Under the pieces are notes generated by a model. That model had not been told where the DNA came from and did no database searches. It saw only the letters and a list, made by a program, of their open reading frames with translations. From the NCBI GenBank assembly GCA_032358255.1, contig JAULBX010027274.1, positions 124,001-188,000 of the forward strand: 64,000 nucleotides of DNA, given 5' to 3'. Shown piece after piece: positions 1 to 64,000 of this stretch. The stretch is from Heterotrichella gracilis (Eukaryota > Sar > Xanthophyceae > Tribonematales > Xanthonemataceae). Both the position numbers and the translations under genes were made by a program. The stretch's first letter is position 1; each line of letters starts with the position of its first letter.

Positions 1-19
1 GGGTTGAGTGACCAACCAG

Positions 20-3000
20 GATGCAGCTGCCACGCTGGCACTCATAGAGGAGGCAAACATGCAGGTGCGCTGACAATCCCTAGGGTACATTATGCAGGGT
101 TTAGGGGCTCAGATTCCCTAGGGGACAACAATGTGGTGCAGGGTTGAGGAGGCAAATAAACTGATGCGCTCACAGCCCCAGGGCAGGGTCTGCGTGTGCG
201 ATGAATTCACGCAGGCGTTTGGGCTTGACATAAGTAATAAACCCTGATTTGTGTCCCCACAGGTTAAGCGGGCCCTGAGCGAGGTGTTCCGCAAGGAAAA
301 CAGTGTGGGTGCCCTAAAGCGCCTCTAAACCCTAGTACCCTTGTGCCCCCCGGTTGAACTGGCATTGCTTGCGTTAACTGCCCCTAAAATACCCACTTTT
401 CAAAATGCCAAATTGAAACATTGATTACACACCTTTGTCGCCACAGGTTGAGCTGGCGCTGAGTGAGGAATCCCGCGAGAAGACCAGCGTGGGTGCCCTC
501 AAGCGCCGCCTGACCGAGCTGCGGGACGACGTGAGCGGTGCGCACCAGCAGCTGCATGTCACCCAGCAGCGGGTGGACTGGAACCTGAGGAGGATAGAGG
601 AGCTGAGGGCGCAGGCGGTGCGTGTGTAATATAGTGGGAACACCTTGGCAAAACCCTAAACCCTTGGCAAACCCTTGGCTGTCAACGTGTGGTGGAATCT
701 AGTGGTAGCTGTGGCAGACCCTTGGCAAGTGCTTGGGAATCGATGTTGCAACCCAGTCGGGGAATGGTGCAAGGTACACAGTGGGAGCCCTAGTGGAACC
801 CTTCTAAACGCCTTAGTAGAACCCCAGTGGAAGCCCGTCCATTTGATGGTTTACTGACTGTGCTTCCACAACCCTTCCCAGGAGCGCTTGGAGCGCGTGC
901 GCACACAAACCGCTACCACCTCTGCCGTCGCCGCCGCCACCACCACCACTGCCACCTCCTCTGTTGAGGCGCAGCTGGCAGCCATGGACCTGGGGGATGC
1001 CGTGGAAACCCTGGACGGGTTTGGGGCAAATCCTAGCACCAGCGGGCGCCAGCGCCGGGGGCTGCAGAGCAGCTTGAATTTCGAGGACAAGCTGAAGCAG
1101 TTTTGGTACCCAGTTGCCTTTGCAGCGGTACGTACCCTTTGGGCGAGGGCTAGGGTTTTGTTAGTTGCATCCCAACAATACAGCCGAATGAGCAGTCTGT
1201 CTTGCACATGCGGCGCCAAGCAGTTCTGCCCTGGTGCTATTTATATCACCTTTTGATCCTGAGCTACCTGAGGTCCTGCTAGACAAGGTCAGCCCATGTG
1301 GCCCTTGTTTACCTACCCCCTTACCTCCGGTGCTCATCACTACGCCAGCACCAATCCTCCCCCTCACATCCTCCTAAACCCTAACCCACCCATAAAAACC
1401 CTCGACCTCAGTACCGCCCAATACCGAATTTTGTTTCCCCCGCCATTACAGAAGGTGGGCACCGACACCATGGTCCCCTTTGACCTCTTCAACGAGCCAT
1501 GGGTGCTGTTTCGAGATGAGGCGGGGGAGGTGGGGTGCGTGCGGGACGAGTGCGCGCATCGAGCCTGCCCGCTGTCCCTCGGTAGGGTTGTGGAGGGCAC
1601 CATCGAGTGCCCCTACCATGGCTGGCGGTTCAACCCCCACGGCGAGTGCACCAGGATGCCCTCCACCGCTTTCTGCAAGGGGGTGGCTGTGTCTGCGCTG
1701 CCATGCTTTGAACAAGATGGTGGGTGATGGTGGGGTGGGTGGGGGTGGGAATGGCTTGGCCTGTGTATTGAGGATGGGTGGTGGGGGTGGTGCCTGCCAA
1801 AAACATGCATAGATGGTGGCAATATATGGTATGTCGCTTAATCCACTTTATTGTACTGCAACAGCAGATGGCGTGACCGCATCATATGAGTGCAGCCCAT
1901 ATACGACGACATACTCATCCTCTTGGTTTACATTTACATTTACAATTACATAGGAATTTCCAAGGCAGAAATGGCAGTAATGTGGCAGTTTAGTGGCAGT
2001 AGTTTGGTAGGCCTGGAACCCGGCACGTTCGTGTAGCAGCACAACCCTAGCCCACACGCCTGGGCGTGGGCGGGAGTGCAGAACCCTGACCTACAAACCC
2101 TAACCCGGTACCCTCTTCCCGCAGGCTTCGTGTGGGTGTGGCCCGGTCAGGGCGCGCCCCCCGACATCCCCACCGCGTTCTCCACCCCCCCTGGGGTCAC
2201 CATCCACGCAGAGATCGAGCTGGAGGTCCCTGTGGAACACGGCCTGCTCATGGAAAACCTCCTCGACCTCGCGCACGCACCCTTCACCCACACCTCCACG
2301 TTCGCCAAGGGCTGGCCGGTGCCCGATAAGGTCAAGGTCCACATGGGGAAGGTGCTGGAGGGGTCCTGGGACCCCTACCCGATTGACATGGCGTTTGCGC
2401 CCCCCTGCATGGTGGTGTCCAAGATAGGCCTGGCGCAGCCGGGCAAGATCGAGCGGGTGAGTGGGGGGCGATAAAAATCGGATTAATTGAATTGGATACC
2501 CTTGGCCGAGAGGTCCGGGTAATCTTGTAAACTGCATCGTGATGGGGATATATCATTGCAATTAATAATGCAACGAGGAATGCCTAGGAAGCGCGATTCA
2601 TCAGATCGCGTTGATTACGTCCCTGCCCTTTGTACACATCGCCCTTCGCTCCTACCAATTGGATTGAATTGGGTGTAGGGGGGGGGGTGTTCTATATAGT
2701 GTGTGTGGGCTGATATGCCATGCAGACTTGGTGTGAGTATGTGTGCGCATGCCCTGCAGGCCTCCGCTGCAGGGATGCTTTCCCTGCGTGCTGCCCTTGG
2801 TTTGTTGGCACCCAATTGATACATCTTCCTGACACCAAACCCCAACAAAACCCTCGACCTGTAGCCATCATCCCTGATTGCCTGCAACACTCCGACCCAT
2901 GCCTAACAAGACCCTTCCTCTACAGGGCGCCCGCGCCTGCACAAATCATCTGCATAGCTGAACCCTACAACATCCAGATGTATAACCCTGACATAACCCT

Positions 3001-3697
3001 TAGCCCTTCCCCTGCAGGGCGCCAGCGCCGACGCGTGCACCAACCACCTGTACCAGCTGCACGTGTGCCTGCCCAGCAAAGCAGGCCACACCCGGCTGCT
3101 GTACCGCATGGCGCTGGATTTCCTGACGTGGACAAAGTATGTCCCGGGGATCCAGGCGTTCTGGAAATCCATCGCGGGCCAGGTGGGTGGCGGATGGGAA
3201 GGCTGGGGGGGGTGTGAGTGGTCCTGTGGTTTTGGCGTCGGTGGTGCAGGGGGGTAGTTTGAGTGTGTGAGCTCTGCTGGACGACGCTGCAAGGGGAAGG
3301 GTACCTGCTACAGAATGTTGGTTACCATTTAGGGGTAAGCGCCAAGGGGGACAGCAGGACAGGTTGCGCAAATGGGGGGATAACCTGGGTTCATTAACCA
3401 GCCCCCTCACTTCCCCTCCTCCCTCTCACCCCCTAAACCCTTAAAAAAACATCCCCCTAAATTCTGAACCCCATGCAGGTTCTGGGTGAGGATCTGAAGC
3501 TGGTCAAGGGGCAGCAGGACAGGCTACGCAAAGGGGGGGACACGTGGGCAAACCCCGCGCCCTACGACCAGCTGGCGGTGCGGTACAGGCGCTGGCGGAA
3601 CGCAGAGTCAGAGAAGCCCTTGGAACCCCCACAAGGGTCTGAGCCCATGGATGGGGTCACCCTGCGCAAGCAAGAGGATGGGTCGTGGCGGGTGTGA
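20..3697 (+). CDS. CAO: Chlorophyllide a oxygenase (chlorophyll b synthase), 5' partial
   Basis: Rieske-type mononuclear iron oxygenase that converts chlorophyllide a to chlorophyllide b at the plastid membranes. Exons read: 20-64, 447-617, 882-1127, 1452-1719, 2125-2456, 3018-3182, 3479-3697 (481 residues visible; all splice phases agree). The first exons give a helical, charged stretch (the regulatory/linker part of the family), then FWYPVAFAA leads into the Rieske domain. The [2Fe-2S] ligands are seen as CAH (1551) and CPYHGW (1608). The mononuclear iron site is [12 protein letters not shown] near 2255-2290. The C-terminal end has [10 protein letters not shown] and YRRWRN, typical of CAO. 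The N-terminal transit peptide and A domain lie outside the window. Introns carry decayed copies of exon edges (listed separately). Identity is strong; the placement of exon 20-64 is less certain because it is short and at the window edge. Confidence 0.93.
141..176 (+). repeat. Echo of CAO exon 20-64 donor edge
   Basis: The words GAGGAGGCAAA and TGCGCT of the exon end and its donor (about 48-72) recur here in the same order inside the following intron. The GT of the donor is lost. Short and therefore weaker than the other echoes. Confidence 0.45.
250..327 (+). repeat. Echo of CAO exon 447 acceptor edge (decayed exon copy)
   Basis: A copy of the acceptor (CCCCACAG) and the first 66 bases of exon 447-617, placed about 184 bases upstream. 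It would read VKRALSEVF...SVGALKRL and then stops, against VELALSEES...SVGALKRRL in the true exon. Roughly three quarters of positions match by eye. Confidence 0.85.
2910..2957 (+). repeat. Echo of CAO exon 3018 acceptor edge
   Basis: CTACAG followed by a decayed version of the exon start: it reads [10 protein letters not shown] and then stops, against [15 protein letters not shown] in the true exon about 92 bases downstream. The polypyrimidine run before the AG is also copied. Confidence 0.75.
3326..3392 (+). repeat. Echo of the interior of CAO last exon
   Basis: The run GACAGCAGGACAGGTTGCGC and the following G-rich stretch repeat bases about 3505-3550 of the last exon. The copy lies in the intron just upstream, in the same orientation. 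Confidence 0.75.
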
Positions 3698-7800: not shown

Positions 7801-9978
7801 CATTTCACTCCCTGGTCATCATGGCAGTGGTGCTGGGGCTGGGGAGGTATGCATCGAATATCCCCCTGGCGGTCCTGGCTGGCATCCTGCTGAAATGCGG
7901 TCTGGATGTGATGGACTGGGGGTACCTGAGGAGGGTGCGCCAGCTGTCGTCGGAATCGCTGCTGGTCATGGTGCGTGGCCCTTGCTTTACCGCCCTCCAA
8001 CCCCTCAAAACCTGGAAACCCTATGTTAGGATGCAGGGCATAAAATGTAGAGTAGGCAGGGCGCTGCATTTGCATGCATTGATTATAAAGTGGTGTGATG
8101 GAATGGGGCTACCTGAAACGGGTGCGCCAGCTATCAATGGAATCCCTGCTGGCCATGGTGCATGCCTCTACCTCTCATGATGCGTTCATTTTCCCTCTTA
8201 TCCCCCATTTTTGGTCCTCCCTCATGATGGTACTTTGCGTTAGCTGAGCTTCCAAACCTAGGTCATCATTTTCCCGTTTTCCTCCCCTCCTGTCACAGGG
8301 TACTGTCCTCACCTTGACTGTTTTCTACGACCTCATCGCTGCGGTGGCTGCCGGCTGCTTCCTGTCAGCCCTCTCCTTCTTTAAAGTCATGGCAGAGCGC
8401 CAGGTGGCAGACATTCGCTTCATCGACGCGCAGGCATTGGAGACCAGCAGCCCCGCACAGCTGGGGTTGAGTGGCGAGGAGGCGACCATGGTGGCGCAGC
8501 ATCCGGGGGGTCTGGTGGTGGTGCGGTTACAGGTGAGGTTAGGAGAAACCCTAAAGAAGGGTTCAGTGTGCAGCAAAAAAAATATGTAGGGATGAGTGGC
8601 GAGGAGGCGACCATGGTGGCGCAGCATCCAGGGGGTCTGGTGGTGGTGCGATTACAGGTGAGGGTGGGAGAAACCCTAAAGAAGGGTTCTAAGTGCAGCA
8701 AAACCCTGTTTTAGGGTTGAGTGTTGAGGAGGCGGCCATGGTGGCGCAGCATCCGGGGGGCCTGGTGGTGGTGCGGTTACAGGTGAGGGTGGGAGAAACC
8801 CTGACGCAGGGTTTTGTGTGCAGCCTGATGTGGCCAAGGGGAATTACAGTAGGCCATGCACTCGATCGGCAAGAAAAAATTTGTTTGTATGCTGTGGGTT
8901 TGCGTCTGCCCACTTATGTATAGTATAGTATTCCAGGCGGTGTGATATGGCCACGGTGCGCTGACTGGCACCCATTCTGTTGACGTTTTTGCCTCGCTTT
9001 AATAGGGCATGTTCACGTCTGGTGGCGCCAGCGGCGTGGTGCGCAGCGTGCTGCATGGGTGCGCCTCCTACCGCACACTGGTGTTGGACATGAGGACCGT
9101 GGCTGTGGTGGATGACAGTGCGGTGCTGGCACTGCGGGAGATGGCTGGGGCAACAAAACGGGTGAGCGAGGGTATGGAAATGATCCATTGACAAATGCTG
9201 CTACATGCATGCAAAAGAATGGCAGTTTTGTAACCGCCGCTGCACGCTTTCATGTACCTGGATGCCACTCCCTGGCTGGGTGCCCCTGCTGCCAAACCAT
9301 ATGTTAGGGTGTCAACTCCAACCTAAGAATGCACATGGTGATGCGACCTGAGTGCCCCGCTTGTTGCACTGCAGGCTGGCCAGCACATGTACGTGTGCGG
9401 AGCGGGCCCAACAGCGGCGCAGCTGATCAGCCGGCTGGGGGTGGGAGCAGTGCTGCATGGCGACCCAACATCGGATCGACTCACATGCCTGCGCAACATC
9501 ACCAGGTGCCCCAAGGAAACAGGGTAAATCAAGGGTAATAAGACAAATATATTATACCTATTATTATCTAATTGCGCTTGGTAAACAAATTAATTATACC
9601 TGTTATTATCTAATTGCGCTTGGTAAAATGCGCTCACATGTGACACCTGTTATAGAGCACAGTGTTGCAGAGAAACTTTGGAGCATGCAATATAAGACCT
9701 TATATATTATTATTATTACATTATACATTACATGGGTACGCAGCCTGCATGTTGCGAAGTAAAGGGAGCTTGCATGCATATATTGCCAAGTAAAGGGGAC
9801 CTTGCACACATATAATGCCACACATCCATGCTGAAGGCATGTGCCATATTGCAGGGTCAACAGCCCTGCAAACAGCCCAGCCCCCGTATCCAGCAGCGGC
9901 CGCGACAGCAATGACAACGGCTGTGTGCAAGCTGCTGTGCCCCAGGACCAATCGCAAGACATGGCCATGCAGGGTTAG
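4846..9978 (+). CDS. Plastid-targeted SulP/SLC26 anion transporter, BicA-like, with STAS domain
   Basis: Anion transporter of the SulP family; the closest remembered relatives are cyanobacterial BicA-type bicarbonate transporters, so bicarbonate or sulfate is the likely cargo. Exons: 4846-5182, 5386-5504, 5857-5916, 6140-6189, 6543-6651, 7084-7458, 7692-7970, 8299-8532, 9006-9161, 9375-9505, 9855-9978 (657 residues). The first roughly 80 residues are basic and Ser/Pro rich, like a transit peptide. Then come NLLGDLCGGLTAAVVALPL, GGTPAQVSGPTGPMTVV and SGFMTGIGCIIVITQLP, hallmark stretches of the membrane domain; IDSLLTSLVAD and a later glycine-rich GGLPGAGATMRT follow. A STAS domain starts in exon 8 and includes LVLDMRTVAVVDDSAVLAL. 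The end of exon 5 is ambiguous (two in-phase donors) and the last exon is chosen by phase only. Targeting to the envelope is inferred from the N-terminus. Confidence 0.87.
8092..8165 (+). repeat. Echo of SulP exon 7 donor edge
   Basis: Repeats the last about 65 bases of exon 7692-7970 plus the donor. It would read VMEWGYLKRVRQLSMESLLA against VMDWGYLRRVRQLSSESLLV. The frame is preserved, so the copy is young or was under constraint. Confidence 0.88.
8590..8690 (+). repeat. First echo of SulP exon 8 donor edge
   Basis: Near-identical copy of the last about 65 bases of exon 8299-8532, with the donor and about 35 bases of intron (GGTGAGG, GAAACCCTAAAGAAGGGTTC). Period about 124 bases. Confidence 0.92.
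8710..8826 (+). repeat. Second echo of SulP exon 8 donor edge
   Basis: Third copy of the same unit, again with donor and adjoining intron. Together with the true exon edge this makes a three-unit tandem array with a period of about 125 bases. Confidence 0.92.
9552..9627. repeat. Tandem duplication in SulP last intron
   Basis: A 33-34-base AT-rich unit containing ATCTAATTGCGCTTGGTAAA occurs twice, about 42 bases apart. Purely intronic, not exon derived. Confidence 0.9.
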
Positions 9979-10951: not shown

Positions 10952-12624
10952 CTAGATTGGCGGCGTGAGCGGGTTGCTGAGGTTATACAAGCCCAGCGCA
11001 GGGCCCACGAATCGGAACAGCACCCACCCCCCGCCAATAACAAACAGCATCGCATACGCAATCTTGTTGAACCAGAAGAGTAGCCCCCTCTTGCCGGTGT
11101 ACAGCTCATACCCACGCTGGAACAGGTCCATCTCCTCCCACCCATCGGGGAACAGCTGCCCCTCAGGCCACTCTGCTATCCCAGAGGGCAGCTCCTGCAG
11201 GCAGGGATAAGGGATTAGGGTTTAAGGTTTTGGTTTAGGGTTTTGGGGTATGCCTACAGCTGCCCCTCGCGCCACTCTGCTATCCCAGAGGGAAGCTCCT
11301 GCAGGCACGGATTAGAGGTTTGAGGTATGTCTACAGCTCCTGCCATCAGGGTTTAGGGTTTTGGATTCTGGGGTATGCCTACAGCTCCTGCAGGCAGGGA
11401 TTAGGGTTTAGGGTATGTCTGCAGGAGCTGCAGACATGGTGGGGGTGGGGGTGACTTTGCCAGTGGCGGAGGGAAGTATGCACCTCTATATACCTCTGTA
11501 CGCATCAAGTGTGACTAATACAGCCTGGGAAAGCAGCCCTCCATGCGACAAGCAATCCCCTATGCACTGCCCCCCGTTGCCCCCTAAAACAACTGTTCCA
11601 GGACGGAAACCTCTTGGTGCCTGCAACTCTGAATTCTACTGCTGGAGTGCTATGCCTAGTGAGAGTGTACGCAGGGCTGGGTCGTTACCTTGGTGGCCTG
11701 CGACTGCGCCACGTGCTGCTTCATCACTTGCGCGCTCCCCCTTTTCGTCTTCAGCCCCTTCTCGATAGCTGCCAGCCTGGCCTCGTCATCTTTCAGAAAC
11801 TCCTGCCCCGACCCGCTGCTGCTCTCTTCTTCCTTCTGTGCATATGCTATTCCCCTTGCGCCCCAACCTGCGCATCGCGAGGGTGGCTGGTGTCAAAGGG
11901 TGTGCACAGGACAACCGCGGCAGTCCACTCATACTGCTGATGCTGTTCCTCATGTGTGTGTTCATCCGTTGCAACTGGATGGCGACTGCAAGTATGCTCT
12001 GCCCTCGGCGCGGTTTGAAGCTTTAAAATTGTCCAGTTGTATGCATCCCAACCAAACCCCTGCTGCTAGCGTCTCACTTTGGTGGCTCCCGCACCAAGAG
12101 TGTGGCACATGAGTGGGTGCAACAGGTGGATTGTGCTTTGCGGAAGTGGATGTAGGGTTCCCAAGGCCGTTACTGCATGGTGGGTGGGGGCCATCACTAC
12201 GGATGTTAGCAGCTCAACAGCATGACCACATGCCTTTGCTTTATCATTAAATTGGGTAAAATGACTCTCCCTTCAAGCTTTATCGACAGACACTACTACA
12301 TGTTTTTGTTGCTTATGCTTCCAAGCACCCATATCAAGCTAAATAAGGAACCACCCACCCACCCACCCACTCTCATCCACCCACATAGGTGATGGTGGCC
12401 AGTGGTGGCCTATGCTTGGGCAAGATACAACACTTGGCTACTCTCCAAGCACAACCACAACATATAGTGCTTAAAAAGAGGGTTCAATACTTACTGCTCT
12501 TTGCTCTCCTGCTGACACCCAGTGCTGCTCGAGAGGGTCTGGGCAGGCCCCTTGCCACTCGTAGCCCCCCTGGCACTGAACCGGTGACAGGGCACAACTG
12601 CCTGCTGGCACACACGGTCTGCAT
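10952..12624 (-). CDS. Plastid-targeted small membrane protein, family not recognised
   Basis: Three exons: 12624-12495, 11867-11689, 11194-10952, giving 183 residues. Exon 1 (MQTVCASRQLCPVTG..., many R, S and A, no acidic residues) is a clear transit peptide. The middle exon is a charged helix (EFLKDDEARLAAIEKGLKTK). The last exon holds LFQRGYELYTGKRGLLFWFN, then one hydrophobic span (IAYAMLFVIGGGWVLFRFVG) and a short tail ending LTPPI. The acceptor of exon 2 was set at GCGCAG before position 11867 because only that one keeps the frame with exon 1. It has the look of a conserved green-lineage thylakoid or envelope protein, but I cannot name it. Divergent promoter shared with the J-domain gene. 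Confidence 0.72.
11252..11312 (-). repeat. Echo of exon 11194 acceptor edge
   Basis: Copy of the acceptor and about the first 40 bases of the last exon of the plastid membrane protein, found upstream in its intron (on the + strand: CTCTGCTATCCCAGAGGG, GCTCCTGCAGGCA). Only the boundary-proximal part is kept. Confidence 0.9.
11332..11430 (-). repeat. Shorter serial echoes of the same acceptor
   Basis: The boundary word CAGCTCCTGC(AGGCAGGGAT) recurs near 11335, 11385 and, inverted, near 11421, each next to GTTTAGGG words. These look like further truncated copies of the same unit. Confidence 0.6.
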
Positions 12625-13163: not shown

Positions 13164-15746
13164 ATGAAGACTGTTCACACCATACAAGCCTCTGTAACCA
13201 GTCTGTATGCCCCGAGAGTGGCCGAAATCCGTTCGATCAGGGCTCATCAGCCAGATATCAGCCCATCAAAAACGCCTAGAGCGTTCCCCAAGTCCCATGG
13301 CGCGGCAAAGCGAGCAGGGGTTGTGCGGGCAGAGAGGCTTGGTGACGAATCAACGGCTGTTGAAGACAAGGTGTACGACACTGACTTTGTGGAAGCGATG
13401 AACGAGGTGCGAGTTGGCCCTTAGTAAGATGCCTGTTGCACAGGGTCTGTGGTATAGTTGTACCTCGCAACATATACAGTACAGGTGGCGTAGCTGAAAC
13501 ACCTGTTTCTTCCTAGAGCCTCAAACCCGAAACCCTAAGGCTTCGCGCCACACACCACTCCTACCCAAGAGTGCATGCACCTGGAGCTATTGTGTGATGA
13601 CGAAACCCTAGCGCCCAAACCCTAAACCGCACCACACCCACAACTTTCTACCCTGGTGCCAGTGTCTGCGTGCACGCGGTGCCTTCATTGATGCCTTAAC
13701 CCTAAACCCCAAAGCTGAAACCCTAAGCCCTATCACACCAGCAAGCACCCTTCACCAGGCCTGCACCCGAGAGCCTCCCGTGATGCTGAAACCCTTCACC
13801 CCTTATCCTAACCTTAACCCCCAAAGCTTAAACCCTAATCTCTATCACACCATCACACATCAACCCCCACCCTGGTGCCCATCCAGGTGTGCACCCGGTG
13901 CCTGCGTGTGATGCTGGATTCCGACGACACCGCTGCTTTTGACTTGGCCATGGAGCTCGACGACCTACGGGTGCTGGTCAACGGGGAGGGGGACAAGGAA
14001 ACTGCAAAGTTCCTGACGGTGCTGCAGGTGAGGAGTGGGCGAAGGGGGTTGTAAGTTGTGGTTGATTTTGCACTTGGTACCAAACAGCAGTGGCACGGCA
14101 GGCGTTTAATTTTGCAGGTGAACAGTGCAGCAGGTGGGCAGTAGGTGATGTGGGTTCTAATTACGTACCCATGCATTCAAACGCATTGCAGCAAGATCAG
14201 CAGACTGCATGCTTCATTCTGCTGCCCATGCTTTTCTAAGTCAGTGGTGCAAAATGAGTTGGATTCCTGCCATGTCGCCTTGCTGTTTGGTACCAAGTGC
14301 CGATGCGTGGGGTTGAGAACTCCACGTGCCGTCAGTTCTTCGGTCACAATGCTTTACTCGCATATCGACGGGCCTCTTCCATAGTCCCAAGCACCCGTCA
14401 AGTCAGGGATGGGTGGCTGATCTTACTTTATTGCCAGTAGTAATACTGCAAGTAGTAATAATAACAGTATTGCACCCGTGCATGCATGATGCCATGTGCC
14501 CCCACTCCACTGCAGGGCATGCTGAACCACACTGTTCCGCCTCGCGCCACCGAGCTGGAGGGCCCCTATAGCCAGGCTTTCAACAGGCTGTGCAACCAGG
14601 TGAGTCATGGAATATACCCCTGAGACTCTTGTTTTTTGGGCCCTGGGTTATAATGGATACATGAGCTGCAGCGGATTCGGCTAGTTGGGCTGGCTGTGGT
14701 TGACTGCGTTGGTATTAGATTCCCCAATAGTTTCCCCAAATTTCCCCAACTGTACCTTGTTGAAGTTAGGGGGTTGCTTGCTCTTGGGCATGGCCATGGG
14801 CGTTGTGGTGGGTGGGTTACTTCATCGTCGACTTCATACGGCTGCTGCTTGCGTATCACCCTCATGCTGCACCATACGATACCCCAGGTCTCCTCGTAAT
14901 TCAGGCCAGCAGCCACTGTACCTTTCTCCTGCTGCCCTTGAGCAAGGGGAATACTTTGAACATTGACATAATGTGTCTTTACCAACTCTTCGCTTTTTCA
15001 ACTACATTTCTTGTCACATGCTGGGTGAGCCAGTTCAGGCCGCCTTGTCACATTCCCCCCCCCTTCGACGACGCCACGCCAGATCAGCCGACGCATTAAA
15101 AATGAAACAATTTTGTATTATTTACACCCTTGTCCCATGTGCAGGCTCTGACTGGGTGCTCCGTGAGCCAGGCAAATCAGCCGACGCATCCAAAATGAAA
15201 ATACTTCTGTTTTATTTACATTCCTGTCAAATTTTGCAGGCCTCCGGCTCTGACTGGGTGCTGAGTGAGCCAGGCAAGTCAGCCGATGTGAAGGATAGAC
15301 AGGCCAAGTGGTCCACCTGGGATGATGTCATGGGGGGGAATGCGGGGAGGAACCAGCCGCCACCCGACTCCACTGCCACCTCCTCCACATCGGGGGTCAG
15401 GGATGACTCGTACTACAGGTGAGGAAATACTTTATCTGTCACTTCCATTGCTTAGATTCCGTTGCGACGCAATTTGTGGTCATAAACAAAATGACATGAG
15501 TAAATCACTTAAGTTTCAGGCTTATGGGGCACGAGCACAGCACTCTGATGCTTGCCTTCAAGTTGCTCCCCAACCCCCCTTTTAACCCCAAACAGCAAGA
15601 TTGGTCCATCACAGCTTGCACTCCCTGCTCTGTGCAATGTGACAGCTTTGCTGGTCAGATGCAATCGCAGCGGCACAGGTTGTTGCATGCGTTGCAACCA
15701 TTCAGACACCCATACCAAAGCTGCACACTGCACTCTCAAACAGACA

Positions 15747-15780
<34 letters not shown>

Positions 15781-27962: not shown

Positions 27963-28258
27963 CTTGGCTTCGACCACCTCCCGGGGGGTCTAGGATACAC
28001 ATATCCACTAGCACACACACCCTTGATCGCCAGCAGGGCGTGGGCACGTCCCGGGGTTGCCCCCTTGATCGCCAGCGTGGCTTCGACAACCTCCCGGGGG
28101 TGCTAGGATACACATATCCACTAGCACACCACACACACCCTTGATCGCCAGCGTGGCTCCGACAACCTCCCGGGGGGCTAGGATACACATATCCACTAGC
28201 ACACACACCCTTGATCGCCAGCGGGGCTTCGACAACCTCCCGGGGTTGCCCCCTTGAT
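27963..28258. repeat. Minisatellite, about 70-base unit, 3-4 copies
   Basis: Units contain CTTGATCGCCAGC, GACAACCTCCCGGGG and GCTAGGATACACATATCCAC. Copies differ by small insertions and one abbreviated unit. Confidence 0.95.
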
Positions 28259-28345
28259 CATGATCGCCTCGCCTTCGTCATCTGTACTTCTGATGTCAGA
28301 GCAAGAAAGTACTGCACCGCACCTTTGGTTTCAGAGCACCGAAAA

Positions 28346-29215: not shown

Positions 29216-29284
29216 TTGGCAAACCACAATCCCAAAGAATCTAAAAAAATCCCTATTCATTTCCCCAAGAACTACAAAGAAAAA

Positions 29285-47700: not shown

Positions 47701-49202
47701 CACCCCTTACGTTGTCTGTCAATAGGTGGTTCTCGACAGGGGCATGCGCGCCTTCCTCATTACTCTGGACCAAACTCTAAATCCTTAAAACCCTAAACCT
47801 TACATCCCCTTGTCCCCTACAGTAGGCGCTGCTTGACAAAGGCATGAGCACCTCCCTCACCAGCCCTGGACCAAACCCTAAATTCAAAACCCTAAAACCC
47901 CCTATGTTCCATCCACAGGTAGTTCTCGACAGGGGCATGAGCGCCTTCCTCACCAGCCTGGACTGCTACTGCGACGGCAACTTTGTCACGCATGTACAGG
48001 GCGATGGGCTGATCATCGCCACGCCCACGGGGTCCACCGCCTACAACCTAGCTGCAGGGGGTTCCATGGTGCATCCACAGGTAAGTGGGGATGGGGGGTG
48101 GGGCGTGTATGGTAACGGATGTATTACGTCCATGTTAAAGATTGTCAACACCTCTGCTCAATTTATTCCTCAAGAAGCAATTTTATCCCAAACAGAATCT
48201 TGAAAACCGGCCACAACGTGCCAAAACCCAAAAAACTAATCGTAAACCCCAACTCCCCCATTTTCCCCCAGGTCCCCGGCATCCTGTTCACCCCCATCTG
48301 CGCCCACTCCCTGTCCTCCCGGCCCCTGGTGTTCCCAGAGCACATCCAGCTCATAGTGCAGGTCCCAAGGGACAGCAGGTCAGAGATTTGGTGCTCCTTT
48401 GACGGCAAGGTGAGGAGCCACATTGCGTGCTTAGGGTTTAGGGTTTAGTACAGGTGTCGGGGGACAGCAGGTCTAAGATATGGTGCTCCTTTGACGGGAA
48501 GGTAAGGGTGGGGGCACATGGGTACTTAGGGTTTAGGGTTTAGTCCAGGTGCCGGGGGACAGCAGGTCAGAGATATGGTGCTCCTTTGGCGGGAAGGTAA
48601 GAAACGGACTCCCATGGTTCAGACCTTTCCAAAAGGCGTTTCATGACAGTTTGGTGCCTGGCACAAGGTGAGGGGTGGAGCCACATGCGTGCTTAAGCTC
48701 TGGCATGACGGCATGGTAGTGCACATGATGCAGTGGCCTAAATATCCCTAAAAATGGACTTTAACAATACCTTTCCTCACCCTCCCCCCAGGACCGCCAG
48801 CGCCTGGGCCCCGGGGGTACCACGGTGGTGCACATGGAGCAGTGGCCCGTGGCCCAAAAAATCTTTTCGAATTGTCCAAAAATCCCCTTAAGCGCCCTCC
48901 ATCGCCGTTCCCACAGGACCGCCAGCGCCTGGGCCCCGGCGACGCCATGGTGGTGCACATGGCGCAGTGGCTCTGCTGCACAAAACACCACCCTAAAATC
49001 AACCCTCATTGGTTAACCCTACCCCTTGCCTCCCGCCCAGGACCGCCAGCGCCTGGGCCCCGGCGACGCCATGGTGGTGCACATGGCGCAGTGGCCCGTG
49101 GCCACCGCCTGCCGCATGGACGCCTCCCACGACTGGTTCCTGGGCATGTGCGAGGGCCTCAACTGGAACGTGCGCAAGCGCCAGGCGGGGGCCGGGCTGT
49201 GA
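41709..49202 (+). CDS. NADK: NAD kinase
   Basis: ATP-NAD kinase making NADP. Exons: 41709-41772, 41911-41977, 42425-42850, 43985-44087, 44528-44720, 45062-45290, 45793-45931, 46785-46999, 47309-47411, 47919-48080, 48272-48409, 49041-49202 (666 residues). The first about 330 residues are a variable N-terminal region with a short coiled coil ([14 protein letters not shown]) and a low-complexity [10 protein letters not shown] run. The kinase part starts at [29 protein letters not shown] (exon 8) is the GGDG ATP-binding motif. [12 protein letters not shown], then [31 protein letters not shown] (exon 10, written here in family order) and [17 protein letters not shown] are the conserved NAD-binding blocks. 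An extra exon near 43401-43543 may be used (see findings). Nearly every exon edge from exon 4 on is echoed. Confidence 0.94.
42530..42590 (+). repeat. In-frame 15-base repeat in NAD kinase exon 3
   Basis: Three tandem GGGAATCACA(A/G)(C/T)AAC units encode G-N-H-N/S-N blocks. Length is likely to vary between strains. Confidence 0.95.
43137..43435 (+). repeat. Tandem duplication in NAD kinase intron 3
   Basis: TAGTCTGCTAGAGCT and GCAGCCTGCTACAGGACCAG each occur twice, about 177 bases apart (43140/43312; 43195/43371), with diverged bases between. The second copy abuts a probable exon, so the first may be its acceptor-side echo. Confidence 0.9.
43716..43752 (+). repeat. Echo of a probable exon end at 43543
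   Basis: CAATCATGGGCTGCCATGGT followed by GCGGGACAGG repeats 43517-43545. By analogy with other echoes this points to a true donor at 43544. Confidence 0.88.
44157..44205 (+). repeat. Echo of NAD kinase exon 4 donor edge
   Basis: GCGGTCCACCAAGATGGGTG and CTGGGCATGCGCAAGGG copy 44075-44115. The donor GT is changed to AT. CCCTAAA-type words lie between the copies. Confidence 0.9.
44379..44452 (+). repeat. Echo of NAD kinase exon 5 acceptor edge
   Basis: TTGCAGAGCCAAGGCCTCCT and the following about 45 bases copy 44521-44576 with its acceptor, 136 bases upstream. Confidence 0.93.
44749..44814. repeat. 22-base tandem repeat, three copies
   Basis: GGATCATGCACTTGATTTGG plus AT, three times head to tail with a single difference, in NAD kinase intron 5. 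The freshness suggests recent slippage or amplification. Confidence 0.97.
45437..45500 (+). repeat. Echo of NAD kinase exon 6 donor edge
   Basis: AAGCAGTCGCAAGAGGCGCT and GGGGGAAGTGGTCAGGTGGG copy the end of exon 6 and donor (45247-45296). Confidence 0.93.
46375..46480 (+). repeat. First echo of NAD kinase exon 8 (GGDG active-site exon)
   Basis: Acceptor and about 65 bases of exon copied: [17 protein letters not shown] is intact, after which the copy diverges. About 398 bases upstream of the true exon. Confidence 0.95.
46575..46680 (+). repeat. Second echo of NAD kinase exon 8
   Basis: A further copy, about 200 bases after the first: [13 protein letters not shown], with the catalytic glycine changed to arginine. 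Shares its 3' continuation (CTCATCATCTTG) with the first echo, so the two copies share an extended unit. Confidence 0.95.
47132..47190 (+). repeat. Echo of NAD kinase exon 8 donor edge
   Basis: CATCCCCGTCATGCTGCGAC and ACAGGTGGGG copy the exon end and donor at 46976-47005. Confidence 0.9.
47718..47880 (+). repeat. Two echoes of NAD kinase exon 10 acceptor edge
   Basis: TTCTCGACAGGGGCATG-type copies at 47727 and (more decayed, GCTTGACAAAGGCATGAGC) 47824 precede the true exon at 47919. Each is followed by CTGGACCAAAC(C/T)CTAAAT, so the exon word is joined to a telomere-like word. Confidence 0.93.
48451..48602 (+). repeat. Two echoes of NAD kinase exon 11 donor edge
   Basis: GGGGACAGCAGGTC and GATATGGTGCTCCTTTG occur at 48460 and 48553 with working-looking GTAAG donors. 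They are separated from the exon and from each other by TTAGGGTTTAGGGTTTAG. Confidence 0.95.
48789..48980 (+). repeat. Two echoes of NAD kinase exon 12 acceptor edge
   Basis: CAGGACCGCCAGCGCCTGGG begins near-identical copies at 48790 and 48914 and the true exon at 49038. Periods are about 124 bases each. The copies keep about 60 bases of exon ([11 protein letters not shown] in the second). Confidence 0.96.
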
Positions 49203-53692: not shown

Positions 53693-54178
53693 ATGTGCAG
53701 TGTTGAACATGACAATTCTTGACTTGTGTACATTCAATATTTTGCAGTGATTTGGCTGTCGTTACCGCCAAGGACCGCAACAAGTTGGAATTCAATGAAG
53801 ACATTAGTTGATGGTACATGTGTTGCCTGCCGCACGGCTGACGCTATTGTGGGCTAGTTGTCTCCTGCAAAGCAGAGTGGGAGTCAGACGATCAGCACCA
53901 GTCAGGAGAGAGGCATTTTGGCACCAAAAGCGAACCCCACCTTAGCACATGCCACAAATTGCCATGCTGCACGTCCCGCGCCACCTGAAAGGCTCCAAAC
54001 AGCATGTGCACATCACCCAGCTTGTGACCCACCACGCCTAGCTAGCCTCGTGCCACAGCGGCAAGTGCACCCCACCCACCATTTCATCACCAATCCCCTT
54101 TCATGTGCAGCATGGGCAACCACCGTAGGCTCGCTGGCCGATGCAGCATGCGCACCCCACCCACCATTGCGCCACCAT
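53693..54178. other. Intergenic between convergent fragment and Mpv17 gene
   Basis: Mostly holds decayed copies of the last Mpv17 exon towards its right end (54055-54178). Nothing else recognised. Confidence 0.5.
54060..54165 (-). repeat. Echo of Mpv17 last exon, downstream side
   Basis: CCTTTCATGTGCAGCATGGG and GGCTCGCTGGCCGATGCAGC copy 54225-54272. Flanking CACCCCACCCACCATT words recur three times. Confidence 0.88.
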
Positions 54179-56875
54179 TCACCCTTTCATGTGCACCCCA
54201 CCTCCCATTGCGTCGCCACTCACCCTTTCATGTGCAGCATAGGCCACCACCGCAGGCTCGCTGGCCGATGCAGCGTGTGCCACCAGCCCGGCAGGCTGCA
54301 GCTCCTGAAGGGCCTCCTTTGCGCTGCGCACCCGCTGGTCAAAGCCAGTCTGCATGGTGCTCAGCACAACGCACCAGGCGAAGGACAGGCCAGCCACTGC
54401 AACAGGCACACAGGAGGCAGGCTTAGGGTTGGAAAGCGTGTCTAGGGTTTGGGGTTGGGGACCCTAAACCCTAAACGGCTCTTGGAGCACCTCCTTGGCG
54501 CTGCGCACACGCTGGTCAAAGCCAATCTGCACGGAGCCCAGCACATGGGGTTGCCTGTCCTTTGCCTGGGCCTGCCACTGCAACAAGTGCTCAGCGACTT
54601 AGGGTTCAGGGTTGGAGAGTGCCTGCAGGGTGGGGTGGAGCAACGCGCCCAACCTCTTTCACATCCAGAGCAACCTGAACTGCTGCACCAAGGAGAAGAG
54701 AATGACCAAGCGCTGCTTCACGGCAATGGCCCGGGCTGGTGAAGGTGATTATAACCCAATGCAAGAAAGGGATATGCTATGCCTGGGTTCGTGTCCCTTC
54801 GACAACGTCAAGTGCATACACGGCATCCCCGTGCCACCACAACCATACCCGCACCACCACGATCACCAGCCTGTTGACATTAAGCTGGTGGGTGCTGTGT
54901 CATATGCATGCATTGCTTCCAACACCATGCATTGGTGCATCACCAGCCCACCACAAGCCCGTTGCATGCACCAAATGGCACCCGCAGATGCCGCGGCTTG
55001 GGTGTGGAGTTGACCAGCTGAACCCTACACCCTAATACCTAAATCTTATATTCTGCTCTGGCTGAAATATGGGACACCATAGCATGCACATGCGGACACC
55101 CCTAGCCCAGCAGGAGCTGGGTGGCACTGCTCCTAAGCCCAAAAACTTGCGGGATTAGGGTTTCGGGTAAGGGATTACAGTTTACAAATTTAGGGTTAGA
55201 AAATAGGGTTTAGGGTGTGGAGCAATCAATTACCCCAGCCCACCCACCGAATGGCACCCGCAGGTGCAGCGGCATGAAGGTGAAGTTGAGCAGCTGAACC
55301 CTAAACCTTGAACCCTAAATCCTGATTCTGCTCCGGTTGCAATGGACGCGCCATAGCATGCACATATGGACACCGTTGGCCCAGCAGGAGCTGGGCACAG
55401 ACCCTAAACCTACATTAACAAGGTATGGTCTTAGGTTCGCATTTAGGGTTTAGAGGTTTAGGGTCGGTCACTGTTACCCCAGCCCACCCACCGAATGGCA
55501 CCCGCAGATGCAGCGGCATGAAGGTGAAGTTGATGAGCTGACCCGGCACCCACAACATCCACATTGCCTTGTTGCACTCGAAGAATTCCGACTTGTAGCG
55601 CTGCAGGCCGTCCATCAGCGCTCGGCCCTCCACCCAGGCCTTGGTCATGTAGAAGCAGGGGTAGTACATGAACGGGTTGCTGCAGGGGGTGCAATAGGGC
55701 AGCGCTGTCAAAAACGAGGATTTGAGGTAACTTTGGTGTTCCATTTTAGGGTTAAAGGGAGTGCAGCGAGCAGCGGGCAGTGTGAAGACCATTTAGGGTT
55801 TAGCTATCGGTAAAAATCAACAAAACCCTAAAAACCTGCACTGCCTCAGTTTAGGTTTGACACTGGCTGAGCGCCATGTCCAGAACCACGTATGCCATAG
55901 CAGTTTCACAAATTAACCCTGAGCAAGATCACCCCAAAACCCTCCATTGCAACAGTAAAAAGGTTGGACACTTACTGTTGCCTCATGTCCAGCGCCGTGT
56001 ATGCCAATGGCAGCCCCTAAAACCCTAAACCCTACACTAGATCACCCTAAAACCCTCCATCGCAACAGTTCAAGGTTGGACACTTACTGTAGCCCCATGT
56101 CGATGGCCGTGTATGCCAGTGGCAGCCCCCGCTTGCCCACAACCCGCGTCAGTGCGGGTGCCCATCTGGGGAACTGCTGTGCGTACAGCCAGTACTGGAA
56201 GCCCCCCAGGTATGTGAAGCCAAAGGTTGTGAACACAGCGTGCTTGCTCCAGTCCATGTGCTCCCGCTTCTCAACCACCTGTCAACAGATAACCAACCAG
56301 GTTTACATTTTGGTCAGAAAGTGTGGGATCACACCTGCCATTCACATGGTGATCCGCTCAGCAGGTGCACACAACACCACTGTGAGAGTTGGCGTTGAGG
56401 ACTGCTAGTTCCAGTGGTGGGAAGCCTTGGCTTGGTGCATAGCCTTGGTACAGTAAGTACCTCAGCAGTGCACAGGTGCCAGGTGCGAATGGCTACAGTT
56501 GGGATTTGTTCCCACATGTGCCAACTGTGCAGTGCTGTACAGGGAGTCTGGTGGACGTGCAGGGCAATTGAATTGGCGCGGTGGTGATGCTACTCAGGTT
56601 TCCCAGTGTGTGAATACAGTCTCACCTTTTGGGCTACCGTATCTGCCGCACTTGTCTTGACGCCTGTGGTGATCACAGCAGTGGCAAAGGGGCTCTTCTC
56701 TGCTGTCTTGTTGTACCTGGTGTGGTCAGAAGGTAGCGAGGTTACACCATGTACCAGACAGCCTATATTACACTAGGGAAGGAAAATTTGAGAGGCAAGG
56801 AGCAGCCACCTACCAGGTAGCAACACCAGTGACGGGGGACAGCAACACCTTGCCATATCTGGCGATGTTAGTCAT
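54179..56875 (-). CDS. Mpv17/PMP22 family membrane protein
   Basis: Five exons: 56875-56814, 56716-56626, 56278-56088, 55679-55492, 54396-54179 (249 residues). Four-helix membrane protein of peroxisomes, mitochondria or plastids, thought to form channels. Seen in order: MTNIARYGKVLLSPVTGVAT/WYNKTAEKSPFATAVITTG, DTVAQK, an exon with HAVFTTFGFTYLGGFQYWLY, IDMGLHNPFMYYPCFYMTKA, and the family signature MWMLWVPGQLINFTFMPLHL followed by RVPF. The last exon has AGLSFAWCVVLSTMQ and an acidic/Ala tail. The last stop could be replaced by a further splice (GAAAGG/GTGAGT) but no further exon was seen. Exon edges are heavily echoed. Divergent from chlorophyllase. Confidence 0.92.
54473..54595 (-). repeat. 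Echo of Mpv17 exon 5 acceptor edge (long)
   Basis: About 110 bases copy 54302-54405: GCGCTGCGCACACGCTGGTC and GCCACTGCAACA match, including the acceptor. The copied frame is shifted by indels. A CCCTAAACCCTAAA run lies between copy and exon. Confidence 0.92.
54940..55030 (-). repeat. Far echo of Mpv17 exon 4 donor edge
   Basis: CCAAATGGCACCCGCAGATG and GAGTTGACCAGCTGA copy 55492-55545 in decayed form, followed by CCCTACACCCTAA. Confidence 0.85.
55225..55310 (-). repeat. Near echo of Mpv17 exon 4 donor edge
   Basis: CCCACCCACCGAATGGCACC and GCGGCATGAAGGTGAAGTTG copy 55483-55535 closely, donor included. The AGCAGGAGCTGGG intron word is also doubled (55110, 55385). Confidence 0.94.
55855..56025 (-). 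repeat. Two echoes of Mpv17 exon 3 donor edge
   Basis: GGACACTTACTG...CATGTC...GCCGTGTATGCCA(A/G)TGGCAGCCCC is found at 55968-56018 and, more decayed, at 55858-55905; the true edge is 56078-56130. AAAACCCTCCAT(C/T)GCAACAGT is doubled as part of the unit. Confidence 0.93.
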
Positions 56876-57766: not shown

Positions 57767-60700
57767 ATGCCTCTGGCACCTTCACCTTTGCTCGCGGTCA
57801 TGAAGCCCCGTCGCCGCACTGGGGCAGTAGCAGCTTCTCTTTTGGCAATATCGTCGTCGTTCATCGCGATACGAAACGCAATGTGTAAGGGTGTGGCAAG
57901 CCCTCCCGCTGAAAGCTACGCACAGCCTGGACCTTTCGAACACGGGACCTGCCATGCAGCCATACACTCCGAGATAAGCTACAGGAACGCCAAGGGCTGT
58001 GTTGGGTTGCAAGACGGTGACAGCACCAAGTTGAAGCTCTCGGTGACGTTTCCGACCAACGCCACCGGTGGAGACGGTGCAGAGCAAGCTGCCAATGGGT
58101 TGGGCCCGCCCTACCCACTTGTTTTGCTGTACAATGGGTTTCAGGTGGGTCCTAGAGACGTGTGTGCCTGGCCACTTTGGTGTGTACTCAGTATTTATTG
58201 AATGTTGTAACTCACAACCTCCAGAACTGTAGGAGCCACAGTGGCATGTTCACCCCATGCTCCGACACTTGTGGCTGAGCACATACAAGGTTACAAACAC
58301 CATATGTCCCTGTAGGCTTGCAAACACAGCCGTCAAGCACAGAGGAGGCCTGAAAGCGGGGAAGCCTATGTATGCGTGCGCTGCTCTCTATTCCAGAACC
58401 AGGAACTTTTCCTACCCCACCCACACACACACCCCTCCATACACCAGCATGCATGCCTAGTTATGCGCCCAACCCTACACCCTACACCCACACACCATAA
58501 ACCCCACTGTTAGGGTATCCAGCTCTTAACCATGGCTCCCCGCTGGTGTGCAAGTGCGTTCCCCCTGTTGTCCTCTCCCGGAACAAAACGCAAAACCTAC
58601 GAATGCTCCCCTGGTCCAAACCCTAAACCCTAAACGCCGCCCCTTGCATGATACCCACAAACGCAACCCTAAGCAGTGGCTCCTCCCCTTTTGCAGATGC
58701 GCTCTTCCTGGTATCAGATGTACGCCACTCGCCTTGCCAGCTGGGGCTTTGTGGTGGTGCAGTACGACCTCCCCTCCACATGGGTCGTCTTCCGTAAAAT
58801 CATCCCTGACATTGCAGAGGTAACCCTTGGTTGCACGAGGCGCTTGCTTTACATCGGTCTTGCTAACTAGTCCTCGACTGCCTGGGTTACCTGATATTAA
58901 ATACGTCTGCACTACTGGCACCGACTGGATTCAACCTACAGCCTACTTCCGGCAATGAAGTATATTGGGCACTAGGCATACGCGCTGCTATTATGACCGC
59001 AGTTGGAGTTTTGCCTGCAAATTTTGATAGTAACCTCCCCCACCTCCATTACCACAGATAGGATTTTGGGACGACATGCGCGCCTGGCTGCAGCAGCAGA
59101 GCAGCAGCCCTGGCAGCCAGCTGTATGGCAAGGTGGACCTGGGCAGGGTGGGGGTGGCGGGGCACAGCAGGGGGGGCAAGCTGGCGGGGCTCATGTATGC
59201 AGGTGGGGCGCCATGTAAATCTCAGGATCGGCATCATTAAATTACGTTTCTCAAAATCAGTCCCGCTGTTCCACACGTCCACTGTCAACAATATATAAAC
59301 AACAGAAGCACAGCTTAGTTTAAATTTCTTGCAGACCACCCCAAGAAGATATAATTTTCCAATCCCCGCAGGCCATCCCAAGGAGATACAGGCCGCTTAC
59401 CTGATTGACCCCGTGGATAGCGATGGCAAGTACGCGCCAGAGAGCATCCAGCGCCCAAGTGCGGTGCGCGCGCTGCGTGAGGCAGGCAGGGTATTTGGGC
59501 TATCAGGGGCGGGTGTGACAGGCAGCTGCAATCCAGATGGGGGGAACTGGAAGGTGCGTGTGAGCAGATTTCCATCTAGATATGCTGTTGGAAATCATAG
59601 GAGAATTAACCACCCAATAACCACCCAATCTACAACAGTTGATTTCATCCCTGCACATTTTGTAAGATACGAGGATATCATGGTTGCACGCCATGGAACT
59701 GCGATATGGTAGGCTTATATGTGGTGCTCATTTTCCAACCGGCTTGTATCTGGTGCTCATTCATTGAGATGAGAGTATGCTTTCTTACCAGAATTGCTTT
59801 TATGAAGATGTATTACCATGCATTGCCTGACCCTGGGTCCCCACGCGCATGCACAGGAGTTTTGGAAAGCCGCGCCACCTGGCAGCTGGTTGGAAGAGAT
59901 CCCTCAGTCGGGACATGCGCAGTTTGAGGATGCAGGGGTTCTGAATGGCCCGATGAATGCGCTGTGCCACAAGGGGAGCAACACAAACCAGGTGCGCTGG
60001 GCTGGAAAGGTTTAGGGCTTGAGTGATTGAATGGCATGATGAAGCGCTGTGCCACAAGGGGAGCAACACAAACCAGGTGCGCAGGGCTTTAAGGGTTTAG
60101 GGTTTGGGTCTTAAAAGTGGTTGATTGGCGTGGTGAATGGCCTGTGCCACACGGGGAGTCCCTTGATCTGGCGCAGCATTGGTGTGTGATGAAATGTGAT
60201 TGTCACCTCAATCTTGGCGCAAGTGATGATTTTGACCACTGCACGCCTCATACTAGGTGCTGGCGTGGCCAAAATTGTCATCAATTTGATGACATTATGA
60301 GAGTTACAGCACAAGTCCTCATTATCCCATGCTGAAATTGCGCACTATGCAGGCAACCATGGAGCTTGCGGCGGCCCCCCTGGTGGCATGGATGCAGCAG
60401 CACCTGCGCTTCGCATCACCACTGGGTGACACCGCAGCGCACGCGCTTGCCATGTTGTCAGACGACGGGGCCGGCCCAGCGGGCCAAAACGGCGCGTCAG
60501 CGAACGGCGCCAGCGTGGCACGTGCGCTTGCCACGTCAGCAGGCAACGGTGCCACATCAGCGAGCGACAGCGTTGCTGAGTCAACAGGCGACAATGGCGC
60601 GCCAGCTGGCGACAATGGCAATGGGGCGTCAGCAGGTGACCATGCCAGCTCAGCAGGTGACATCAGTGCCAGCTCAGCAGGCGACAGGCGCCTGGCTGCC

Positions 60701-60823: not shown

Positions 60824-60888
60824 GAGGCCAAAGCCAGGTTCTAGAATATCGTCAACAGGGCCAAGAACAGTTTTGGGAGGTACTAGGA

Positions 60889-63650: not shown

Positions 63651-63659
63651 CTCTTTGTC

Positions 63660-64000
63660 ACTCTGGCTGAGTCCACAGCTACGCCATCCTTTGCAATATC
63701 CGCTGCATTTTAGACTGAACGAGTCTAAACGAACCTCTCTACGGCAGTGGTTTTGGTTTGGCAGTAACCAAAATGCATGCATGTGCCACCAAGTTGAAAG
63801 ATGCATGCACACCAACAACTACTCTCTTAATGTCTTGCTGGCTATAGCTGGAAAAATCTAGTTGGCCGTTTGTATGTTAAGACAAGAAACAGTTCTTCAG
63901 TTGCGGTTAAGTCGTATTGATACCACAGTGGTACATGCACGGCGATAAATATGGCGCCAAATATTCACTGCCACTAGCCAAGCATATATACCTGTCGTCT
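63660..64000. other. Window end, no gene assigned
   Basis: May hold the first exon of the unknown minus-strand gene. A short ATG frame at about 63714 (MQRILQRMA) is a candidate but its splice phase does not fit. Confidence 0.3.

What the first reader, a model, noticed from the sequence alone, without database searches (positions are those of the whole stretch)
1..64000. Exon-edge echoes: introns systematically contain decayed direct copies of the neighbouring exon boundary
In ten of the eleven complete multi-exon genes, or their partial neighbours, I see one to three copies of an exon's first or last 20-105 bases together with its AG or GT, always in the same orientation and always in the intron or flank next to that boundary. 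Acceptor echoes sit upstream and donor echoes downstream of the true exon. Periods are often 100-200 bases. This fits repeated short tandem duplication across splice sites, with the copy nearest the intact exon kept in use. The density (over 30 cases in 64 kb) suggests a genome-wide mode of intron growth, and leaves many decoy splice sites that could affect transcripts.
Basis: partly seen in the sequence, partly recalled or inferred. Interest (0 to 1): 0.92.

Follow-up and report, generated by a model that had tools for sequence, protein, structure and literature searches.

The report
Telomere-bridged duplications at exon edges
In this green alga, short pieces of DNA at the edges of exons have been copied next to themselves again and again, often with telomere (chromosome-end) repeats sandwiched between the two copies, which suggests that broken DNA is patched with the chromosome-end machinery and that introns grow this way.

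Summary
The window, from a green-algal contig, holds 35 non-overlapping local direct-repeat loci against 2 inverted pairs. In my sample of the same assembly 34/240 donor and 21/240 acceptor edges have a copy in their own intron; reverse-complement controls 0/240 and 0/240, foreign introns 1/720 and 0/720. Other stretches have none (0/192 edges), so density varies.

Fillers up to 60 bp carry the plant-type telomere repeat in 13/28 cases (2.5 expected). Of 40 interstitial telomere arrays taken without regard to exons, 20 have directly repeated flanks (19 without one telomere self-match), 9 abutting the array; random controls 273/3000 and 41/3000. Long arrays show a fusion polarity: TTTAGGG then CCCTAAA at 36 loci, the reverse at 7; short blocks do not.

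Best reading: staggered breaks repaired with telomeric DNA added at the ends, fill-in and joining, giving X-telomere-X. Where X spans a splice site the copy joined to the exon keeps the mRNA intact; the other stays as an echo. Known parts, new combination. Exon-edge preference, long non-telomeric fillers and uneven density are unexplained.

The parts
252..323 (+). Acceptor echo of the chlorophyllide a oxygenase exon that starts at 447; true copy 436-507; tctaaaccctag directly behind the echo
8094..8164 (+). Donor echo of exon 7692-7970 (sulfate-permease family), true copy 7907-7977
8589..8824 (+). Two donor echoes of exon 8299-8532 (true copy 8464-8574), period 125
11256..11386 (-). Acceptor echo of the exon with edge 11194; telomere repeats in the spacer
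15080..15184 (+). Acceptor echo of exon 15240-15418
25001..25102 (+). Acceptor echo of exon 25272-25400 (purple acid phosphatase)
39614..39670 (-). Donor echo of exon 39725-39813; true copy 39716-39771
39671..39715 (.). Telomeric filler between the copies, TTTAGGG on the left and CCCTAAA on the right
43136..43244 (+). Acceptor echo of exon 43373-43546; true copy 43305-43418
43721..43750 (+). Donor echo of exon 43373-43546, 97% identical, filler of 173 bp not telomeric
44160..44207 (+). Donor echo of exon 43985-44087; telomere-like filler 44123-44159
44381..44447 (+). Acceptor echo of exon 44528-44720
45445..45492 (+). Donor echo of exon 45062-45290 (NAD kinase)
46367..46650 (+). Two acceptor echoes of exon 46785-46999 (NAD kinase GGDGT exon), period about 199
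   Evidence: exon choice
47147..47188 (+). Donor echo of exon 46785-46999
47720..47871 (+). Acceptor echoes of exon 47919-48080, C-type telomere motif behind the echo
48446..48601 (+). Two donor echoes of exon 48272-48409; the motif cttagggtttagggttt precedes the echo
   Evidence: exon choice
48777..48971 (+). Two acceptor echoes of exon 49041-49202
   Evidence: exon choice
54062..54153 (-). Donor echo of exon 54202-54421
54969..55300 (-). Donor echoes of exon 55492-55679
55825..56017 (-). Donor echoes of exon 56088-56278, telomere motifs in the unit
60028..60158 (+). Donor echoes of exon 59857-59991

Best explanation
The echoes are scars of break repair. A break with long staggered ends (segment X, 18-81 bp in the clean cases) arises near an exon edge. 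Telomeric repeats are added to one or both ends, the single-stranded overhangs are made double-stranded, and the ends are joined. This leaves X-(TTTAGGG)n and/or (CCCTAAA)n-X. If X contains the splice site, the copy continuous with the exon still splices correctly, so the event is tolerated; the other copy stays in the intron as an echo and decays. Repeated events, or ordinary expansion of the new repeat, give arrays of three copies. SHOWN: local direct-only duplications at splice sites; telomeric filler between copies well above background; fusion polarity of long arrays; identical young copies around pure telomere filler. INFERRED: that the repeats were added in the same event, that telomerase and a CST/polymerase-alpha type of fill-in do it, and that the breaks are staggered.
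For: Direct-only and short-range: 147 direct and 6 inverted pairs of at least 36 bits within 700 bp in 256.6 kb. Edge test 55/480 edges against 1/1440 foreign-intron and 0/480 reverse-complement tests. TTTAGGG is the organism's telomere: seven-unit arrays occur on 11 contigs, on six within 200 bp of the contig start in CCCTAAA orientation, on five in the opposite orientation (contig lengths of those five not fetched). Three-unit arrays match 901 times in the assembly, reversed-pattern control 0. The first 40 distinct interstitial loci of that capped list: flanks directly repeated in 20, reverse-complemented in 1 (L083, a telomere self-match counted in both), both copies within 18 bp of the array in 9; random positions 273/3000 and 41/3000. 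Clean cases: L093, X 64 of 64 bp identical around aatcctaaaccctaaaccctaaaccct; L040, X of 39-40 bp identical around gggtttagggtttagggaccctaaaccctaaac. Polarity: GGGTTTAGGG-N0-30-CCCTAAACCC 46 hits at 36 loci, opposite order 10 hits at 7 loci (loci counted by me). Motif in fillers of 8-80 bp 20/38, in equal-length outer flanks 6/76. Motif on the junction side of the echo 31/55, on the other side 18/55.
Against: Short 7-mer blocks in the sampled stretches show no polarity (TTTAGGG-first 9, CCCTAAA-first 13 below 15 bp; 4 and 3 at 15-40 bp), and one short filler runs CCCTAAA then TTTAGGG. 15 of 28 short fillers lack the exact motif; fillers of 101-250 bp have about background coverage, 5.3% against 4.45% of these introns. 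In 12/42 echoes the filler itself is duplicated, i.e. plain tandem duplication. In 8 of 16 clean cases the exact motif also lies in one outer flank, in 11 of 16 with one mismatch, as expected if an existing motif was duplicated. Of 35 fused arrays only 10 have repeated flanks and 7 abutting ones (8/36 with a stricter core). The motif is also raised near splice sites in introns without detected duplication (19% and 13% of windows against 9.9% inside). No enzyme was tested; no reads, relative or population data were available; detection favours copies whose partner is a conserved exon.
Confidence: 0.62

Rival explanations
1. Plain tandem duplication of short segments (slippage or ordinary fill-in repair). 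Telomere-like motifs were already beside splice sites, perhaps as splicing signals, and were simply copied along with X.
For: 12/42 echoes have a duplicated filler; 8 of 16 clean cases have a motif in an outer flank; the motif is raised near splice sites also in introns without detected duplication; near acceptors it is almost only C-type (41 against 6 of 194 introns).
Against: Fillers of 8-80 bp carry the motif in 20/38, equal outer flanks in 6/76; in 8 of 16 clean cases no exact motif is outside; fused arrays in one polarity, 36 against 7 loci; X of 64 bp identical around a pure telomere tract.
Confidence: 0.25
2. Target-site duplications of a telomere-associated retroelement that inserts little more than telomere repeats.
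For: Variable-length duplications around telomeric inserts would also arise by nicking and reverse transcription at a target (recalled from general knowledge).
Against: The nine abutting fillers and the fused ones hold telomere repeats and short unique bits, no element body that I recognised; no dispersed repeat of at least 40 bits in the window; copies of 18-81 bp vary widely. A retroelement library was not searched.
Confidence: 0.07
3. Assembly artefact or mixture of organisms.
For: Bacterial contigs are present and echo density differs between contigs; no reads could be checked.
Against: Copies are diverged to many degrees, keep reading frames in the true exon, and two eukaryotic families each match only one contig.
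Confidence: 0.03

Closest known systems
Short interstitial telomeric sequences inserted during double-strand-break repair in mammals (Nergadze et al. 2007, PMC2246262; passages seen)
   Same: Telomere repeats inserted at a break; a minority with duplication of the target (Table 1: 6/130 rodent loci, 4/25 primate loci)
   Different: Here direct repeats flank about half of 40 unselected arrays, head-to-head fused arrays occur, and many events lie at exon edges of a green alga
Small tandem duplications by CST-guided polymerase alpha-primase fill-in at 3' overhangs (Schimmel et al. 2021, PMC8355091; abstract, passages and Discussion seen)
   Same: Duplication of a short overhang by fill-in on both ends and end joining, by a complex that also fills in telomere ends; 43-bp overhangs used there
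   Different: Nicks induced in mouse and human cells; no telomere repeats at the junctions in the text that I read
Natural tandem duplications in rice attributed to patch-mediated break repair (Vaughn and Bennetzen 2014; seen only as a citation inside PMC8355091)
   Same: Short direct duplications ascribed to nearby nicks in opposite strands
   Different: Paper not read; no telomeric filler recalled
Intron gain by tandem duplication of an exon segment holding AGGT (recalled; review PMC3488318 seen only as a search listing)
   Same: Exon sequence repeated within an intron
   Different: Here X holds an existing donor or acceptor and the intron is lengthened; no echo ends at the far end of its intron (0/55)

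Membership tests
Interstitial telomeric sequences from break repair | Insert consists of the species' own telomere repeat | tested here: met
   TTTAGGG arrays at contig ends and in fillers; 15 of 28 short fillers lack it
Interstitial telomeric sequences from break repair | Empty site in a relative or allele shows insertion in one step | not testable with these tools
   The assembly has no relatives here
Fill-in tandem duplications at staggered breaks | Short, direct, neighbouring duplication | tested here: met
   147 direct, 6 inverted pairs; spacing peaks 80-140 and 180-200 bp
Fill-in tandem duplications at staggered breaks | Copies directly abut, as in the published product class | tested here: not met
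   Telomeric or other filler separates many copies: 71 loci with a filler of at least 8 bp; some arrays do abut
Fill-in tandem duplications at staggered breaks | Dependence on CST/polymerase alpha and end joining | not testable with these tools
   Needs genetics
Intron gain by tandem duplication | Duplicated segment makes the whole intron, so the echo meets the far splice site | tested here: not met
   0/55 echoes within 10 bp of the other end of the intron
Introners or other dispersed elements | Same sequence found in many introns | tested here: not met
   No dispersed pair of at least 40 bits in the window; three fillers searched together in the assembly gave one 69-bp relative

The most novel reading that the evidence does not exclude
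In this alga telomerase and the telomere fill-in complex act routinely on ordinary staggered breaks inside genes: ends are capped with telomere repeats and fused, and this is a major engine of intron growth. The inserted CCCTAAA repeats then serve as branch-point and pyrimidine-tract DNA for the neighbouring acceptor, so that chromosome-end sequence is recruited as splicing signal.
Probability: 0.3. Interest if true: 0.87.

Novelty: new variant of a known kind. Interest (0 to 1): 0.7.

Why it matters
It would be a natural, genome-wide record of telomeric repair of breaks inside genes, with the duplicated overhang still readable, and a concrete route by which introns lengthen and gain decoy splice sites. 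It joins two literatures, telomeric repair insertions and fill-in tandem duplications, that share an enzyme complex, and it can be tested directly in laboratory algae.

Tried and rejected
A first gene finder without length and transition penalties predicted 2206-2718 mostly tiny exons and was discarded. Two organisms in one assembly as the cause of echo-rich and echo-poor stretches: NadB has one close match in the assembly, the next best being 43% in a 528-residue open frame; Nic96 and RPS19e each match a single contig; codon usage correlates 0.97-0.98 between groups, 0.97 within the echo-poor group and 0.99 within the echo-rich one. One eukaryote is likely, with bacterial contigs beside it. 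Intron gain by duplication: 0/55. Dispersed introner families: not found in the window. Priming register of the repeats at the X ends: looked at by eye, no firm rule, not claimed.

Groups: A (C476 window and flanks, C110, C20, C560, C695, C425, C605) and B (C65, C155, C200, C245, C290, C380, C335) were formed after seeing repeat counts; L014 (bacterial), L015 and L018 were left out of the edge test. Without grouping 55 of 672 edges have echoes, and telomere-motif count correlates with duplication loci over 24 stretches (Spearman 0.68, p 0.0002; L014 and L018 left out); part of that follows from the motif lying inside the duplications.

Splice-site targeting: 61 of 87 loci of group A span a splice site (33.7 expected by random placement), intron-only 6 (21.0), intergenic 4 (13.0), mixed 16 (13.4), both copies exonic 0 (5.9). 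Among arrays chosen by telomere sequence and having repeated flanks, 15/29 have a predicted splice site in a copy, random fragments 75/300. Conservation of exons inflates both, and echo exons called by the gene finder inflate the first, so the preference is only suggestive. The two array samples share one neighbourhood (L025 and L075, both on C9 near 147.5 kb).

Literature: ten searches listed no title or abstract about tandem duplications bridged by telomere repeats or telomeric filler at exon edges. This covers only that open-access library, as capped listings, plus passages of three papers (PMC2246262, PMC6410037, PMC8355091).
Full report
WHAT IS THERE. The window is bases 124001-188000 of contig C476 in a 68.5-Mb, 903-contig assembly. 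It holds intron-rich genes of a green alga: chlorophyllide a oxygenase (best named hits chlorophytes, 62% to Gonium), a sulfate-permease-family transporter, an FAD-binding gene that I read as L-aspartate oxidase (NadB; name recalled), purple acid phosphatase, kinesin and NAD kinase (Pfam; NAD kinase). I trained a small gene finder on the window and 192.6 kb of other stretches of the same assembly (404 exons, 51 genes; donor CAG/GTGAG, acceptor TGCAG/G). Some calls are imperfect: the oxygenase and the transporter are fused into one model, and some echoes are called as exons (46389, 46588, 48549 and others).

CHECK OF THE OBSERVATION. Local direct repeats are abundant and inverted ones are not: 42 direct pairs of at least 40 bits, spacing 85-520, none inverted; over 256.6 kb, 147 direct and 6 inverted at 36 bits within 700 bp. 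Aligning each exon edge to its own intron gives 34/240 donors and 21/240 acceptors, against 0/240 and 0/240 reverse-complemented and 1/720 and 0/720 in other introns. In another 96 introns from seven stretches there are none. The two groups were set up after seeing repeat counts, so this contrast is description only; pooled, 55 of 672 edges have an echo. By eye and edge test I count at least 21 exon boundaries with echoes in the window. In NAD kinase, homology supports the innermost copies as the used ones: with all echoes left out, the protein aligns without interruption to structure 9cr4 over residues 43-377.

The space between copies is often telomeric. The motif class TTTAGGG (all rotations, both strands) covers 4.45% of introns in the echo-bearing group, against 0.98% for the next highest of 20 same-composition classes, 1.26% of intergenic DNA there and 0.88% of introns in the echo-free group. 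Runs of seven units occur on 11 contigs, on six within 200 bp of the contig start in CCCTAAA orientation and on five in the other orientation (their contig lengths not fetched), so this is very probably the organism's telomere. Fillers of 8-60 bp between duplicated copies contain the exact motif in 13/28 cases; length-matched segments of unduplicated intron give 2.5 on average and at most 8 in 500 draws. The motif is in 20/38 fillers of 8-80 bp but in only 6/76 equal-length outer flanks.

TESTS STARTING FROM TELOMERE ARRAYS, NOT FROM EXONS. I took the first 40 distinct interstitial three-unit loci of the capped list for the whole assembly (901 matches in all) and fetched about 200 bp on each side. 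Left and right flanks are direct repeats in 20/40 (19 without L083, a match between telomere tracts) and inverted repeats in 1/40 (again L083). In 9/40 both copies lie within 18 bp of the array. Random positions in the echo-bearing stretches give 273/3000 and 41/3000, in the echo-free stretches 47/3000 and 3/3000. Examples: L093, a 64-bp segment repeated without a difference on either side of aatcctaaaccctaaaccctaaaccct; L065, L079, L085, L088, L090, L092, L094, L103 similar with some differences. A second sample, arrays in which TTTAGGG is followed within 30 bp by CCCTAAA, gave 10/35 repeated flanks, 7 abutting, 0 inverted (with a stricter core and the copy in L008 added, 8/36); in L040 a segment of 39-40 bp is repeated identically around gggtttagggtttaggg-accctaaaccctaaac. 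Arrays of the opposite order gave 0/6, one of the seven loci not having been fetched.

POLARITY. Two capped ends joined head to head must read TTTAGGG then CCCTAAA. In the assembly this order is found 46 times (36 loci by my count) and the opposite order 10 times (7 loci). Against this, single 7-mer blocks in the sampled stretches show no such bias. I take the long arrays as the better witnesses, but the conflict stands.

HOW IT MOST LIKELY WORKS. A staggered break leaves complementary overhangs X. In mouse and human cells, fill-in of 3' overhangs by CST and polymerase alpha-primase followed by end joining gives X-X tandem duplications, and the same complex fills in telomere ends (PMC8355091; abstract, passages and Discussion read). 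If telomeric repeats are first added to an overhang tip, the same fill-in yields X-telomere-X. In mammals telomere repeats inserted at breaks are known, with target duplication in 6/130 rodent and 4/25 primate loci (PMC2246262, passages). Addition by telomerase, the identity of the fill-in enzymes and the staggered nature of the break are inferred, not shown. Where X covers a splice site the mRNA can be preserved; events inside exons would be removed by selection.

SPLICING FILTER. On the junction side of acceptor echoes the motif is C-type in 12 and G-type in 2 of 21; of donor echoes G-type in 12 and C-type in 8 of 34. In introns of the echo-bearing group of at least 150 bp, the last 60 bp hold C-type in 41 and G-type in 6 of 194, the first 60 bp C-type in 29 and G-type in 37. 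CCCTAAACCC resembles a branch point plus C-rich tract, so only that orientation would leave a working acceptor. This is inference from sequence. In the echo-free group the last 60 bp hold C-type in 6 and G-type in 0 of 78, so part of the bias is a general property of these introns.

WHAT DOES NOT FIT. Many fillers are long (101-250 bp, 23 of the 68 fillers up to 250 bp) and hardly more telomeric than other intron; three searched together in the assembly were unique except 69 bp with a 90% copy on C713. In 12/42 testable echoes the filler is itself duplicated, so plain tandem duplication or expansion also occurs. Half of 16 clean cases have a further exact motif in one outer flank, 7 on the right and 1 on the left, pointing to serial events or to duplication of an existing motif. 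Spacing has a second peak at 180-200 bp. Duplications fall on splice sites about twice as often as random placement predicts (61 against 33.7 of 87; 15/29 against 75/300), which conserved exons being easier to detect may partly explain. Density differs strongly between contigs for reasons unknown.

VERDICT. Observation confirmed; interpretation partly supported and extended. The parts are known (repair insertions of telomere repeats; fill-in tandem duplication). Their routine combination, often at exon edges, in one genome was not listed by ten searches of one open-access library.

Noticed in passing
assembly contigs C470 (L014), C1, C893: Bacterial contigs in the algal assembly: L014 has GC 37% and bacterial-looking ORFs; C1 and C893 carry long open frames matching the NadB exon.
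   Followed up: partly
L005, L007-L010, L012 against the window, L004, L006, L016, L019: Echo and telomere-motif density differ strongly between stretches with similar codon usage and splice signals; the cause is unknown.
   Followed up: partly
window 27949-28259: Tandem array with periods of about 70 and 114 bp outside predicted genes.
   Followed up: no
window about 45329-45397: A 69-bp part of a long filler has a 90% identical copy at C713:13749-13817, minus strand; possibly a templated filler.
   Followed up: no
all sampled stretches: Spacing of duplications is bimodal (80-140 and 180-200 bp, few at 140-180); the second peak may be two rounds of about 95 bp or reflect chromatin.
   Followed up: partly
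window coordinates 67576-69281 and 70226-72542 (in L002, right of the window): Neighbouring gene models with similar starts (MAAHLESFPFHSLPEPLLQEVLG, MADHPAPVPFPLHSLPEPLLQEVLG), a tandem gene pair at 2.6-2.7 kb spacing.
   Followed up: no
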